From the NCBI GenBank assembly GCA_016928355.1, contig JAFGKW010000056.1, forward strand, positions 1-64,000: a stretch of 64,000 bases of DNA. Reading direction: 5' to 3'. Positions within the stretch are counted from its first letter, which is position 1. Every line of letters begins with the position of its first letter. Shown in pieces: positions 25,868 to 59,642 of this stretch. This DNA comes from Methanomicrobiaceae archaeon. GTDB taxonomy: Archaea; Halobacteriota; Methanomicrobia; Methanomicrobiales; Methanomicrobiaceae. A model generated the notes under the pieces. The model was not told the DNA's origin, made no database searches, and saw only the letters and a program-made list of their open reading frames with translations. The translations under genes were made by a program, and so were the position numbers.

Positions 25868-25942
25868 GGGGCCATAGGGTAGCCTGGACCATCCTAGGAG
25901 ACTGGGGGTCTTCTGACCTGCGTTCGAATCGCAGTGGCCCCA
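25868..25942 (+). tRNA. tRNA-Pro (GGG)
   Basis: GGGGCCATAGGGTAGCCTGGACCATCCTAGGAGACTGGGGGTCTTCTGACCTGCGTTCGAATCGCAGTGGCCCCA; paired acceptor, D, anticodon (loop CTGGGGG) and T stems. Confidence 0.93.
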
Positions 25943-54142: not shown

Positions 54143-55576
54143 ATGTCTGAAGACAGCGGTTCATTGCCCTCAAAAAATAATTTTAGCGAATGGTATAACG
54201 AAATACTCTGGCGTGCCGAAATAATGGATGTCAGGTACCCCGTAAAGGGTCTTTACGTCTGGTATCCGCACGGGTTTGCAATCCGAAAGGCTACATACGG
54301 CATCCTCAGGGAACTTCTCGACAGGGACCATGAAGAGACTCTCTTTCCGCTTTTAATACCGGAGCACGAGTTCATGAAGGAGGCGGAGCATATCAAGGGA
54401 TTCGAGGAGGAGGTCTACTGGGTTACACACGGCGGTCTCTCCAAACTCGACGTCCCGCTGGCGCTCCGCCCGACGAGCGAGACCGCGATTTACCCGATGT
54501 ATGCACTATGGGTCAGGTCGCATGCAGATCTTCCCCTGAAATATTACCAGATCGTCAACACGTTCAGGTACGAGACGAAGCATACAAGACCGCTTATCCG
54601 GCTTCGCGAGATAACCTCCTTCAAGGAGGCCCACACCGTCCATGCGACATGGGAGGATGCAAATAACCAGGTGGAAGAGGCCGCTGTATTATATCGCGAG
54701 TTCTACGACCGGCTCTGTGTTCCGATCGTCATGTCGAAGAGGCCGGACTGGGACAAGTTCCCCGGTGCGGATTTCACGCTTGCGGCCGATGTCATTATGC
54801 CGGACGGAAGGACGCTCCAGGCAGGAACGATCCATCACCTTGGCGATAATTTCGCAAAGACCTTTGATATCACATACGAGGACGAGAACGGCGGGCAGCA
54901 GCTTGCGTTCCAGACATGCTACGGGATCTCGGAGAGGTGCATTGCGGCATTAATCTCGGTTCATGGCGATGATAAGGGACTTGTTCTTCCGCCCGCTCTC
55001 GCCCCGGTCCAGATAGTAATCGTCCCGATCATCATGAAGAAGATGGCCGAAGAGGTCGCACAGGCTGCAAAGGATATCGAGGCCGAGATGAAGACCGCAG
55101 GTTACAGAGTCAAAATCGACGACAGACCGCTTCGCCCGGGTGCAAAATACTATCATTGGGAGATGAGAGGCGTTCCGCTCAGGCTGGAGATCGGACCGAG
55201 GGATATCGAGAACGGCGTTGTTATGGCTGTAAACAGACTCGGGGAGAAGACGACGCTCCCGCGTGAGAACCTTGCAGACGGAGTCAGCTCGCTTCTCGAC
55301 GCCTTTAAGGACCAGCTGATGGCTTCGGCGGTCGGGAAGGTCAAAGAGAAGATACATATCGTCAATTCTCTCGACGAGGCGAAAGAGGCCGTCGAGACAG
55401 GAATCGCCGTCGTCCAGTGGTGCGGTTGCGAGGAATGTGCGGACGAGATCGAGAAGGTTCTCGACGTCAGCCTACTCGGCGACGACATCAGGTCGGAATA
55501 TATTGAGAAGGCCGAAGGAAAGTGCATCGTCTGCGGCAGGCCCGGGAAACAGGCTGTTGTTGGAAGAAGTTACTGA
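54143..55576 (+). CDS. proS: Prolyl-tRNA synthetase (archaeal/eukaryotic type)
   Basis: [49 protein letters not shown]; zinc-binding C-terminus. Confidence 0.97.
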
Positions 55577-55591
55577 TTTTTTTGCTTTTTT

Positions 55592-55646
55592 TTAGAGCAC
55601 GTCCTTGGTAAGGATGCGGTTGGGGGTTTGGATCTCGGCCGGACTG
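55592..55646 (+). pseudogene. Decayed tRNA-Thr(GGU)-like 3' fragment
   Basis: TTAGAGCACGTCCTTGGTAAGGATGCGGTTGGGGGTTTGGATCTCGG...: end of D-arm, 5-bp anticodon stem CGTCC/GGATG with loop TTGGTAA, and a degenerate T-arm; no 5' acceptor. Confidence 0.6.
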
Positions 55647-55788
55647 TTGTTTTTTGTATTTCTTAGCTCTATATTCTGATGTTTTTTAAAAATTGATTTA
55701 TGGTGTGAGCTGAGAACGGAAGCGAGATGGTTTCCAGGAAAAAGACCAGACGGAAGAAATAAACCGAATAGTTAACAAACTCTGAAAA

Positions 55789-56172
55789 ATGGGAGATTCA
55801 AAAGATCCAGATTCACAGGAAAATCTCAAATGGATTATGTACCATCTTGTAGCCTTAGATTATAGTCATGAAAAATATTCAAAAAAAATCAATGAATTGA
55901 CCGAACAAAAAAAGCTAAAAGATGCGAACTCTTCTGAACTAAGATCAATAATTCAGGAAATAAAGAAAATCAGTAGTTGGTATCAGGATTCTCTCCAAAC
56001 ACATCAAACCAAAGCAATCAATCATATCCCTGAAGGTAAAAGGAAAAAATGGGAGAAAGAATTTCGTGATAAAGAAAATAAATCGTGTTTTAATCTCTAT
56101 GTCGAAGATCAAAAACCTGATTTTGATCTCTCAATAAATGCATTCAAAAAAGGAAGCGAACTAAAAAAATAA
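55789..56172 (+). CDS. Hypothetical protein (accessory)
   Basis: 127-aa AT-rich, Lys/Glu-rich ORF between two tRNA remnants; no motif recognised. Confidence 0.6.
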   Translation: MGDSKDPDSQENLKWIMYHLVALDYSHEKYSKKINELTEQKKLKDANSSELRSIIQEIKKISSWYQDSLQTHQTKAINHIPEGKRKKWEKEFRDKENKSCFNLYVEDQKPDFDLSINAFKKGSELKK

Positions 56173-56190
56173 TTGATTCATCAATGCATT

Positions 56191-56259
56191 TAGCCAAAGT
56201 GATAGGATCTTAAGATCCTGTCTTGTAAGAGTTCGAAGGTTCGAAACCTGCCGGTCTCA
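56191..56259 (+). pseudogene. Decayed tRNA-Leu(UAA)-like remnant
   Basis: TAGCCAAAGTGATAGGATCTTAAGATCCTGTCTTGTAAGAGTTCGAAGGTTCGAAACCTGCCGGTCTCA: anticodon arm AGGAT-CTTAAG-ATCCT, class II variable arm and T-loop present; D-arm collapsed, no matching 5' acceptor strand. Confidence 0.75.
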
Positions 56260-56308
56260 TTTTTGTTTTAGTTTGTAGCATCATATTATAATGAATTGTC
56301 AATAACTG

Positions 56309-58444
56309 TTGGATGAAAGAAAGGAATCTGATAACATGGCCAATGACGAATCCTCATCAAAACCATTTTTTGATGAATTTATTGAAGGAAGTAAAATAAA
56401 TTGTTCAAAAGCATTGAATGATATTGAAGAGAAGCTAAAGAGACTAAACAAATTAGAAATCATCTCTAGATTATCGATTCTTACTAAGACCGAAATTGGA
56501 AAGTATTACATAGCAGATCATAGTATTTTTGATTTACCTTGCCTAAATTTTGTAATTGGTCTTGCATTGAAAAATGAATTCTGTAGTGACGTAAAACCTT
56601 CCAATGAAGATATTGATTTAATTCTAAAGGATTTGCAATTATATTTTTTACACTTTCTTCCGTCAATGATGCCAACATCTGGCAATAAAGAAAATATTGA
56701 CGATGTAATCTTCCATGCTCAAATGCATGCATTAATCAAGCAACTAAATCCTGAAAAGTATCCATTCCAAATGAAGGAATTACTTCTTGAAACATTTGGA
56801 AAGTTTGAAGAATATTTCTCTAAAAATTTTGGTTTCACGATCACCGATGTTATTATATTCAGTGAAAAAATAATCCAACAATATGAAAATTTGATAATTC
56901 AGAGAATAAGTAAAATAAATCATGCAAATACAGAACCTGGGATTGATTTTTTTTCAAAAACAGGAGATCTGTTAGCGATTGATCCTGAAGATTTTTGTAA
57001 ATCCAACTGTTGTGATATAATTAAATTTAAAAGGTATCTTGATGTTTTTTCATGTCACTTTGGTGAAGGGTCACCCACATACAACTCACCTCTTGATGAG
57101 AATATCTTCCTTAAAAAACCAATATTATGTTATAATGGACGATATTTTGCACCAATTCCCCAGGATTTATTCCAAAATTTACCCTTAATATTTGAAGGAA
57201 TATTAGAGGAAGAAAAACGTAAGAATTCAAAAGTTTGGCAAAAATATCAGGGAATTAAAGCTAAGTTTACTGAGAAAAAAGTAACAGAATATCTTGGGCG
57301 AGTTTTTGAAAAAGAAAAGGTTCATGAAAATTTATTTTATCCTATTGGGGAGGATAAGACTGCAGAAGTTGATCACATTATCCCATATTCCAATTATATC
57401 ATAATCGCCGAATCAAAGTCTGGAAACTTTACAATTACTCCAAAAAAAGAGGGTATTAATAGAATTTCTACAAACCTTAAAAAATTAGTCTGTGAGGCGC
57501 ACAATCAAGGATTAAGGGCTAAAGAATATATAAAAACCACGATTCCTGCGACATTTACAAATTCAAGAGGGAAAAAAATATTGGAAATTGAATATAAAGA
57601 AGATATTACCAGGTTTATTCTTATAAATGTGACATTAGAACCTTTGTTAAGTTTTTCAAGTAGCCTTAAAAATATCGAATCACTGGGACTTTTTTCTCAA
57701 TCTGAACTCCCATGGTCAGTTAATTTATTTGAATTAGATATCCTTACAAGGTGTATCGATTCACCTGCTGTTTTCCTTCATTACATAGAGAGACGACTAA
57801 GTACGCAAGAGACAGGTTTGTTTGCGGCATTTGATGAATTATCTTTCCTAGGTTTATATTTAGACAGGGGGAATTTCAACATTTATTTAGATGATGGTTC
57901 GATACCAACACAAATTCACTTAGATACTGAATTTTTAGAAGCTTTCGATGAACATTATTTACATGGAGGTGAACTTCCAAAATTAACGATTGAAAAAGAA
58001 ATTAGCGATATTATTCACGAATTAGAACAATTGCATCCTGAAAGATTCATAAATATTACAAATACAATTTTAGATTTAAGCCATGAAACGAGGAAGAGTC
58101 TGATTGAATATATAAATAAGATAATCTTCCTATCGACTACAGATGGGAAAAGGCATGATTTTTCTTTAATGACAGAAGTAAAAAAAACCGGAATTACTGT
58201 TTTTGCGCAAATAGGGACCGAAAATCTATATGATCATTTATCCTCATTTTGTTTGTTAAAAAAATATCAGTCGAAAGCCGACTGCTGGATTGGTCTTGGT
58301 ATTGACGTTTTAGATACAAAAAGATTCATCAATACCTATCTTTTTTATGATGAGAAATGGAAACGCGATAAAAGAATGGATAAAACAATAAAATTTAGTC
58401 TTGAAAAAGGGATTATTAAGGCGAAACCAGATTTTCAAAATTAA
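56309..58444 (+). CDS. Large accessory protein with PD-(D/E)XK/NERD-like nuclease motif
   Basis: 711-aa ORF in AT-rich DNA; AEVDHIIPYSNYIIIAESKSGNF fits D...ExK. TTG start in track; ATG available at 56336. Confidence 0.75.
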   Translation: MDERKESDNMANDESSSKPFFDEFIEGSKINCSKALNDIEEKLKRLNKLEIISRLSILTKTEIGKYYIADHSIFDLPCLNFVIGLALKNEFCSDVKPSNEDIDLILKDLQLYFLHFLPSMMPTSGNKENIDDVIFHAQMHALIKQLNPEKYPFQMKELLLETFGKFEEYFSKNFGFTITDVIIFSEKIIQQYENLIIQRISKINHANTEPGIDFFSKTGDLLAIDPEDFCKSNCCDIIKFKRYLDVFSCHFGEGSPTYNSPLDENIFLKKPILCYNGRYFAPIPQDLFQNLPLIFEGILEEEKRKNSKVWQKYQGIKAKFTEKKVTEYLGRVFEKEKVHENLFYPIGEDKTAEVDHIIPYSNYIIIAESKSGNFTITPKKEGINRISTNLKKLVCEAHNQGLRAKEYIKTTIPATFTNSRGKKILEIEYKEDITRFILINVTLEPLLSFSSSLKNIESLGLFSQSELPWSVNLFELDILTRCIDSPAVFLHYIERRLSTQETGLFAAFDELSFLGLYLDRGNFNIYLDDGSIPTQIHLDTEFLEAFDEHYLHGGELPKLTIEKEISDIIHELEQLHPERFINITNTILDLSHETRKSLIEYINKIIFLSTTDGKRHDFSLMTEVKKTGITVFAQIGTENLYDHLSSFCLLKKYQSKADCWIGLGIDVLDTKRFINTYLFYDEKWKRDKRMDKTIKFSLEKGIIKAKPDFQN

Positions 58445-58517
58445 TAGATCTTTTATTAATGTGGCTCATTCCTTTCCGTGAATGCTACAAAATATTCATT
58501 TAAACAGATTTCAATAA

Positions 58518-58817
58518 TCACGAGGACCTGTATCCAAATATCTTATCATACTCCTTATGATCCATCCAGTCGATCAGCAGGGTTATCCGGCCTTCATCAT
58601 CTGATGCTATCCAGTATATCAGTCTCCATGATCTGTTGAGATCATACTTCCAGAGATTGTCCGGTTTGAAAACCTTATTGTATCTCTTTGGGATCAGGCG
58701 TTTTGGGATCTGAATCCCGGAAAAAGGATCTTTTTCTATATTATCAATCGCTTTATTCAGAGCCTTTAAAATGCGTTTGTCTTCCGAATACAAGGATGGT
58801 GCCTGATAAGACAACAA
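58518..58817 (-). pseudogene. RelE-like toxin-family protein, probably N-terminally truncated
   Basis: EDKRILKALNKAIDNIEKDPFSGIQIPKRLIPKRYNKVFKPDNLWKYDLNRSWRLIYWI...IDWMDHKEYDKIFGY resembles archaeal RelE-like proteins; N-terminus is encoded by MFS-derived DNA. Confidence 0.65.
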
Positions 58818-58986
58818 GATAGATTACCAGCGCCCAGGATACCGTACTAAGGTTCGAATCGAAATATCTTGCAATTGTCGGAAGCGATACATTGAGAAGG
58901 CTGATGTTGAACGATCCGATGAAGACTCCGATGCCGACTGTGAAAATTATCCATTTTACCGGCAGATGCGGACTGCTATCCTCCAT
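58753..58986 (-). pseudogene. Truncated MFS transporter N-terminal fragment
   Basis: VKWIIFTVGIGVFIGSFNISLLNVSLPTIARYFDSNLSTVSWALVIYLVVLSGTILVFGR then off-frame QTHFKGSE*; resembles only the first TM helices of DHA2-type MFS proteins. Confidence 0.8.
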
Positions 58987-59038
58987 ATTATCATATTAAA
59001 AAGGGGGGGTTATAAAATATTTGAATTGATCCGGACAA

Positions 59039-59575
59039 TTACTGCTGTCCAGGGGCCATTCCCGGCTGAAGAGGCGTATATACTCTTGTTCCAAGCTCTT
59101 TGTCCAGCATGAAAAGCATCTGTTTGCCGCCGCCCTCTTCTATCATCCTGAGCTTATCCACGATCTCTCCTGCATCCTCTTCCTCCTCGATCTGCTCGTC
59201 GACGAACCACTGGAGCATGTTATGAGTCGCATGGTCCTTCAGGTCGATTGAGAGATCGACGAGATTGTTGATCATGGAGGTTACTTTTTGTTCGTGCTCA
59301 AGGGAAACCTGAAAAGCGTCAAGCGGGGATGCCCATTCCGACGGCGGGGCGTCTATCGGGTGCAGTATGACCCTCCCGCCTCTTGATATGACATACCGAA
59401 ATATCTTCATTGCATGATCTTTTTCTTCCTGGGCCTGGATAAATTCCCAGTTTGCAAATCCCTTAAGGCCGGCGGACTCGTACCATGACGACATCGAAAG
59501 GTAGAGGTATGAAGAATATAGTTCCCACTTGATCTGTTCGTTCAGTGCAGCTTCCATTCTCTTGTCAATTGTCAT
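59039..59575 (-). CDS. Ferritin
   Basis: MTIDKRMEAALNEQIKWELYSSYLYLSMSSWYESAGLKGFANWEFIQAQEEKDHAMKIF; internal ATG start chosen. Confidence 0.95.
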   Translation of the reverse strand: MTIDKRMEAALNEQIKWELYSSYLYLSMSSWYESAGLKGFANWEFIQAQEEKDHAMKIFRYVISRGGRVILHPIDAPPSEWASPLDAFQVSLEHEQKVTSMINNLVDLSIDLKDHATHNMLQWFVDEQIEEEEDAGEIVDKLRMIEEGGGKQMLFMLDKELGTRVYTPLQPGMAPGQQ

Positions 59576-59642
59576 TTTTTTCTCCTCCTGACATTCGAGA
59601 ATAAACTTATAATTATATAAAATCACCTGTCATCTCAGGAAT

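What the first reader, a model, noticed from the sequence alone, without database searches (positions are those of the whole stretch)
55592..56259. Two decayed tRNA remnants (Thr-GGU then Leu-UAA) flank an orphan gene at the edge of an AT-rich island after proS
Sixteen nt after the proS stop, TAGAGCACGTCCTTGGTAAGGATG... matches the tRNA-Thr D-arm end plus anticodon arm. About 600 nt later TAGCCAAAG...GGATCTTAAGATCC...GTTCGAAGGTTCGAAACC retains the anticodon, variable and T arms of tRNA-Leu(UAA) with a collapsed D-arm and no 5' acceptor. tRNA 3' fragments are typical scars of tRNA-targeted integration (established for archaeal and bacterial integrative elements). Two different isoacceptor scars bracketing one ORF suggests a repeatedly used insertion site, or relics carried in by elements.
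Basis: partly seen in the sequence, partly recalled or inferred. Interest (0 to 1): 0.72.

Follow-up and report, generated by a model that had tools for sequence, protein, structure and literature searches.

The report
Fossil tRNA pieces from integrating elements
Two broken transfer-RNA gene pieces in a methane-producing archaeon are real scars in a replaced stretch of chromosome, and following them led to a family of mobile elements in related archaea that cut a leucine tRNA gene in half and carry their own complete copy, apparently to make up for the loss.

Summary
A tRNA-Thr(GGU) relic (55593-55645) and a tRNA-Leu relic (about 56190-56259) both score with purpose-built covariance models (E 0.001 and 2e-5 in 64 kb) and against controls. 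The Thr relic starts where homology to congeners stops after proS. The block 55594-58778 replaced a decarboxylase gene (pdaD) and most of an MFS gene, so it is a replacement, not a clean insertion. The Leu relic reads UAA, but its closest relatives are element-borne tRNA-Leu(CAA) genes; with about 73 nt of 3' flank it matches this genome's own tRNA-Leu(CAA) at another locus. Of 37 tRNA genes shared with a congener, only Leu-CAA and Thr-GGU are badly divergent. In relatives I found the likely source: elements whose integrase sits beside a tRNA-Leu 3' half. In 10 of 10 elements with both ends in hand, the native tRNA-Leu is split in or near the anticodon loop and an intact replacement tRNA-Leu starts 73-156 nt from the start of the native 5' half. 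This matches 'tRNA-dependent lysogeny' of mycobacteriophages; I found no archaeal report. Linking the window's relics to it is inference: likely for Leu, open for Thr.

The parts
54143..55576 (+). proS, conserved left neighbour
   Evidence: 84% identical protein in congeners G001 and G002; gene order DUF63-SpoIIM-proS conserved
55593..55645 (+). tRNA-Thr(GGU) relic, D-loop to 3' end, at the left edge of the replaced block
   Evidence: BLAST to tRNA-Thr genes, shuffle control, covariance model R2 E=0.001; nucleotide homology to G001/G002 ends at 55593-55594
55594..58778 (.). AT-rich (about 30% GC) replacement block; in congeners this interval holds pdaD and an intact 473-aa MFS gene
55789..56172 (+). 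orphan ORF, 127 aa, no family; only relative found is 56% identical in a Methanofollis MAG contig
56190..56259 (+). tRNA-Leu relic: D-arm remnant, anticodon loop with 1-nt insertion, variable and T arms, decayed 3' acceptor; 5' acceptor lost
   Evidence: covariance model R1 E=2e-5 over 56184-56251; best match element-borne CAA of G003; matches own CAA copy on C30
56261..56333 (+). 3' flank of the Leu relic, homologous to the 3' flank of the genome's own tRNA-Leu(CAA) on contig C30
   Evidence: 73-nt ungapped match, score 27.0; 0 of 1000 shuffles and 0 of 500 genomic pairs reach it
56309..58444 (+). 711-aa ORF with a weak NERD nuclease-related match; rare: one other genome of 199 searched in the order (32% identity)
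58518..58817 (-). YoeB/RelE-like toxin ORF overlapping the right edge, no antitoxin seen
   Evidence: PF06769 E=8.5e-6, just under the cut-off
58753..58986 (-). truncated MFS gene; DNA homology to congeners resumes at 58779
59039..59626 (-). ferritin, conserved right neighbour

Best explanation
Both fragments are fossils of tRNA-targeted mobile elements, left in a block that replaced pdaD and most of an MFS gene after proS. The Leu relic with its 3' flank is most likely a decayed copy of the replacement ('cargo') tRNA-Leu carried near the left end of elements of a family described here. Their tyrosine integrase recombines a short core at the anticodon loop of a host tRNA-Leu gene. This splits the gene (5' half at one end, 3' half beside the integrase at the other) and, unlike classical tRNA-targeting islands, does not rebuild it. 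A complete tRNA-Leu gene just inside the element presumably supplies the lost function. The Thr relic is a 3' fragment of the congeners' tRNA-Thr type whose element I could not identify. Shown: the relics, the replacement, the split genes with intact replacements in relatives, and the two divergent tRNA genes in this genome. Inferred: integrase action at these cores, function of the replacement tRNA, and the link from this family to the window.
For: Relics real. Block edges and lost genes. Leu relic plus flank matches the C30 tRNA-Leu(CAA), 139 nt, E 1.3e-9; it scores higher with cargo CAA genes (33.5 G003, 29.5 own C30) than with native CAA genes (17.5 and 15.5). The own CAA locus keeps promoter plus a decayed native 5' half ending in the anticodon loop, then an intact divergent CAA (0 of 2000 shuffles, 0 of 1964 genomic segments). 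Of 37 tRNAs shared with G002 only Leu-CAA (75%) and Thr-GGU (82%) are below 90%. Element family: integrase in 25 of 199 order genomes; 25 of 29 integrase loci have a tRNA-Leu 3' half next to the gene, the other 4 being hits that lack the integrase start; 10 of 10 elements with both ends show native 5' half, intact replacement tRNA, integrase, native 3' half; joined halves give a full tRNA-Leu with the replacement's anticodon in 9 of 10.
Against: The window block has no integrase and no native tRNA-Leu half, and no PF00589 match was found in this draft genome. Its proteins do not match the elements examined. The Thr relic starts in the D-loop, not at the anticodon, so it does not look like a product of the Leu-type integrase; its 3' flank does not match native tRNA-Thr flanks. 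The relic's anticodon reads UAA, and the split native UAA gene of the genus scores 27.5, not far below the cargo CAA genes. No integrase was seen with the C30 copy either; that contig ends about 10 kb downstream.
Confidence: 0.6

Rival explanations
1. Classical scars: both are displaced 3' fragments (attR) of ordinary tRNA-targeting islands that rebuilt the tRNA at the other end, later moved here by rearrangement.
For: The Thr relic runs from the D-loop to the 3' end and sits at the block edge. The own tRNA-Thr gene keeps the native upstream region and first 11 nt, then differs, and its contig ends 1 nt past the gene, so the two could be complementary halves. G040 has a Thr relic with the same D-loop start.
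Against: No native 3' flank next to the Thr relic; no integrase and no intact cognate tRNA on this window; the Leu relic contains D-arm sequence 5' of the anticodon core and shares flank with the C30 copy.
Confidence: 0.25
2. The Leu relic is the displaced 3' half of this genome's native tRNA-Leu(UAA), which is split at contig C6 as in G001 and G002.
For: Same anticodon letters; native UAA scores 27.5; the own UAA locus shows native 5' half plus intact replacement.
Against: The relic matches cargo CAA better (33.5; 29.5 plus flank), and keeps GCCAAAGTGAT upstream of the core, which 3' halves lack.
Confidence: 0.1
3. Ordinary decayed tRNA gene duplicates without any mobile element.
For: tRNA pseudogenes occur; G002 has two Leu relics 110-125 nt downstream of intact tRNA-Leu genes.
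Against: Relics lie at or inside an AT-rich block of rare genes that replaced host genes, and match the only two divergent tRNA identities of 37 (1 in 666 for a random pair).
Confidence: 0.08
4. Chance matches or assembly artefact.
For: Draft genome, 60 contigs, 84% complete.
Against: Covariance models, shuffles and genomic controls; both outer edges join to the conserved gene order.
Confidence: 0.03

Closest known systems
tRNA-dependent lysogeny (Guerrero-Bustamante and Hatfull 2024, PMC10865867)
   Same: Tyrosine integrase; short core shared by attP and attB in a host tRNA gene (about 8-11 bp in most of theirs, 9-15 nt here in 9 of 10); tRNA not rebuilt; [quoted passage not shown] One of their phages (Gaia) also targets tRNA-Leu-CAA.
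   Different: Theirs are actinobacterial phages, tested by experiment. Here: archaea, 12 genera of one order, 25 of 29 integrase loci beside a tRNA-Leu 3' half, replacement tRNA next to the split 5' end. No experiment.
tRNA-gene islands in the Islander sense (PMC4383910) and archaeal tyrosine recombinases (PMC8371274)
   Same: Displaced tRNA 3' half beside the integrase marks one end; anticodon-loop crossover is a known subsite.
   Different: There attP carries enough of the tRNA to restore it; PMC8371274 describes restoration as the rule. Here the host gene stays split.
tRNA(Thr-GGU) disruption and scattered fragment in Caldiarchaeum (Sugahara 2012, PMC3293823)
   Same: A tRNA-Thr(GGU) fragment far from its gene, explained by an element and recombination.
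   Different: That case gained an intron; I saw no replacement tRNA in the passages read.
tRNA gene fragments from integration (PMC9897764)
   Same: Partial tRNA genes as scars of element integration in archaea.
   Different: The Leu relic here looks like a decayed element-borne tRNA, not a displaced host end.

Membership tests
tRNA-dependent integration: element family in relatives | Short core at the tRNA, host tRNA not rebuilt | tested here: met
   Cores of 9-15 nt at the anticodon loop in 9 of 10 elements; native halves remain at the two ends. G081 core unclear
[quoted passage not shown]
   Intact tRNA-Leu in 10 of 10; same anticodon as the rejoined native gene in 9 of 10
tRNA-dependent integration: element family in relatives | Tyrosine integrase | tested here: met
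   PF00589 E=2.5e-20; PHROG integrase 1.5e-29 for the G001 protein; the other loci found by similarity to it
tRNA-dependent integration: element family in relatives | Element tRNA required for survival of the integrated state | not testable with these tools
   Needs genetics
tRNA-dependent integration: the window block itself | Integrase, native tRNA halves at the ends, intact replacement tRNA | tested here: not met
   None in the block; only a decayed cargo-type tRNA-Leu. It is at most a remnant
Classical tRNA island (Islander) | Intact tRNA and displaced fragment flank an island with an integrase | tested here: not met
   No intact cognate tRNA on this window; no integrase found in the draft genome
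Classical tRNA island (Islander) | Fragment reaches the 3' end of the tRNA | tested here: met
   Both relics reach the 3' end, with decayed acceptor parts
Split (trans-spliced) tRNA genes | Bulge-helix-bulge at the junction and no other gene for that tRNA | not tested
   Motif not searched; intact replacement tRNAs are present in all 10 elements

The most novel reading that the evidence does not exclude
Archaea have their own tRNA-dependent integrative elements: a tRNA-Leu-specific family in Methanomicrobiales that breaks host tRNA-Leu genes at the anticodon loop and supplies complete replacements, so that successive elements replace the host's leucine tRNA genes with foreign ones and leave tRNA fossils such as those in this window.
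Probability: 0.75. Interest if true: 0.78.

Novelty: new variant of a known kind. Interest (0 to 1): 0.62.

Why it matters
If right, essential tRNA genes of these archaea are being replaced by element-borne copies, which makes the host dependent on the element, since losing it other than by precise excision would leave a split essential gene. It extends tRNA-dependent integration from phages of one bacterial group to archaea, is an exception to the rule that archaeal integration restores the tRNA, and gives a source for scattered tRNA fragments and for divergent tRNA genes that would otherwise be read as fast evolution.

Tried and rejected
Rfam at gathering and permissive thresholds found neither relic; family-specific models were needed. 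The idea that proS was followed by a tRNA in relatives was rejected. Viral contigs held no relative of the 711-aa or 127-aa proteins. Matches of the Leu relic in G042 and G034 (L086, L087) showed no tRNA around them and were set aside as chance. Many 3'-only Leu matches in G007 and G012 turned out to be other intact isoacceptors, and G016:C68 is a gene cut by a contig end. The Thr relic's 3' flank gave no match to native flanks. The island's proteins do not match the elements. Structure prediction was not used: with one relative each, the alignments would be too shallow.

Full report
THE OBSERVATION. The window is contig C12 of an unnamed draft genome (1.93 Mb, 60 contigs, 84% complete), probably a Methanomicrobiales methanogen (inferred from gene content and the one named relative of the orphan ORF, a Methanofollis MAG). 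ARAGORN and the general Rfam tRNA model call neither fragment. Models built from tRNA-Leu and tRNA-Thr genes of this order do: Leu 30.6 bits, E=2e-5 (56184-56251), Thr 22.9 bits, E=0.001 (55575-55645, the first 18 nt being the proS tail and a T-run), and in each case the only other match in 64 kb is a real tRNA-Lys. Local alignment against 82 tRNA genes gives 33.5 (Leu) and 29.5 (Thr), against at most 17.5 and 16.5 for shuffles and 16.5 and 15.0 for random window segments. By BLAST the Thr fragment matches intact tRNA-Thr(GGU) in about 20 relatives.

WHAT THE BLOCK IS. Gene order DUF63-SpoIIM-proS-(interval)-ferritin-porB-porA is conserved in close relatives. In congener G001 the interval holds pyruvoyl-dependent arginine decarboxylase (pdaD, PF01862 E=1.6e-57) and an intact 473-aa MFS gene; a homologous pdaD also lies there in G002, G003, G007, G012 and G019. 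In the window pdaD is missing, was not found in the rest of the draft genome either, and the MFS gene is cut to about 65 codons. DNA homology to G001 and G002 stops at 55593-55594, where the Thr relic begins, and resumes at 58779. So 55594-58778 (about 30% GC against 49-57% in proS) is a replacement. G002 has a different insert in the same interval, an AAA_15 ATPase and a RelB-like antitoxin. The 711-aa gene is rare (one other genome of 199 searched in the order, 32% identity), and the orphan ORF has one known relative.

TWO DIVERGENT tRNA GENES. I compared all tRNA genes found in this draft with those of congener G002. Of 37 shared identities, 35 are at least 90% identical; Thr-GGU is 82% and Leu-CAA 75%. 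These are the identities of the two relics if the Leu relic is CAA-derived. A random pair of identities would coincide with probability 1/666, though I made this comparison after seeing the relics. The own tRNA-Thr gene keeps the native upstream region and first 11 nt and then differs from the congener's gene; the contig ends 1 nt past it. At the own Leu-CAA locus the native promoter and a decayed native 5' half ending in the anticodon loop (L145 9383-9412) are followed about 60 nt later by the intact divergent CAA gene (0 of 2000 shuffles and 0 of 1964 genomic segments reach the match).

THE LEU RELIC. With its 3' flank it aligns to that intact CAA gene and its flank over 139 nt (70.5%, E 1.3e-9); the flank alone gives a 73-nt ungapped match, reached by 0 of 1000 shuffles and 0 of 500 genomic pairs. 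Among intact genes it scores best with the CAA gene of G003 and a UAG gene of G014 (33.5 each). The next section shows that the G003 gene is an element's replacement tRNA. Native CAA genes score 15.5-17.5.

THE ELEMENT FAMILY. In G001 the native tRNA-Leu(CAG), letter for letter that of G002, is split: positions 1-45 at C41:122367-122323 and positions 31-85 at about C41:89000-88946, next to a tyrosine integrase (C41:89056-90201); an intact, different tRNA-Leu(CAG) starts about 105 nt from the start of the 5' half. The integrase occurs in 25 of 199 genomes of the order, 12 genera, 29 loci. In 25 loci a tRNA-Leu 3' half (matched from position 28-61 on) lies beside it; the other 4 hits lack the start of the integrase. 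For ten elements I could read both ends (G001 twice, G002, G003, G034, G060, G081, G099, G123, G165). All ten have native 5' half, intact replacement tRNA-Leu starting 73-156 nt from the start of that half, then 4-38 kb with the integrase, then native 3' half. Rejoining the halves at a 9-15 nt core (5 nt and unclear in G081) gives a full tRNA-Leu with the replacement's anticodon in 9 of 10; native and replacement are 72-93% identical in those nine. Upstream 5' halves are otherwise rare: of 73 tRNA loci of this genome and G002, three had one, all Leu. In G001 the reconstructed attP is a perfect inverted repeat around the anticodon loop (TATGTAATAGG-TTCAGGG-CCTATTACATA).

HOW IT WOULD WORK (inferred). 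The integrase recognises the anticodon stem-loop, whose dyad and 7-nt loop resemble a tyrosine recombinase core site (PMC8371274). The shared core is too short to rebuild the gene, so the host tRNA is cut in two; the element's own complete tRNA-Leu supplies the lost function. When such elements decay or recombine they would leave native halves and decaying replacement tRNAs. The window's Leu relic fits the last kind. Two more CAA-like relics of this sort lie in G002 downstream of its CAG and GAG genes.

WHAT IS NOT SHOWN. The window block has no integrase and no native half, and none of its proteins match the elements. I cannot say which element brought the Leu relic, nor that the Thr relic belongs to the same history; the Thr relic's D-loop start and one parallel in G040 point to a different integrase. 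Function of the replacement tRNAs is untested. The literature library is open-access only; within it I found tRNA-dependent lysogeny for actinobacterial phages (PMC10865867) and no archaeal case.

VERDICT. Observation confirmed, interpretation partly supported. The relics themselves are modest; the element family they led to is the more interesting result and can be tested by experiment.

Noticed in passing
window 55577-59039, compared with L075 12010-12513: pdaD (pyruvoyl-dependent arginine decarboxylase) is lost from a conserved position and was not found elsewhere in this draft genome; how the organism makes agmatine is then unclear.
   Followed up: partly
L076 3032-5387 (G002): The same interval in G002 carries an AAA_15/OLD-like ATPase and a RelB-like antitoxin between proS and pdaD, so the site after proS has been used more than once.
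   Followed up: partly
window 58518-58817: YoeB/RelE-like toxin without an adjacent antitoxin, overlapping the right edge of the replaced block.
   Followed up: no
window 25868-25942: ARAGORN calls a tRNA-Pro(GGG) that Rfam does not confirm and for which G002 has no counterpart; it may be a relic or a false call.
   Followed up: no
L146 17429-17501 (own contig C24): The contig ends 1 nt after the 3' end of tRNA-Thr(GGU), a place where an element or repeat may have broken the assembly.
   Followed up: partly
L089 1482-1554 (G040:C10): A tRNA-Thr(GGU) relic about 2 kb downstream of an intact tRNA-Thr(UGU), starting in the D-loop like the one in the window.
   Followed up: partly
L153, L216 (G001 element ends): The attP inverted repeat gives the split tRNA halves complementary element-borne flanks, as in trans-spliced split tRNA genes; a possible evolutionary route, not tested.
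   Followed up: no
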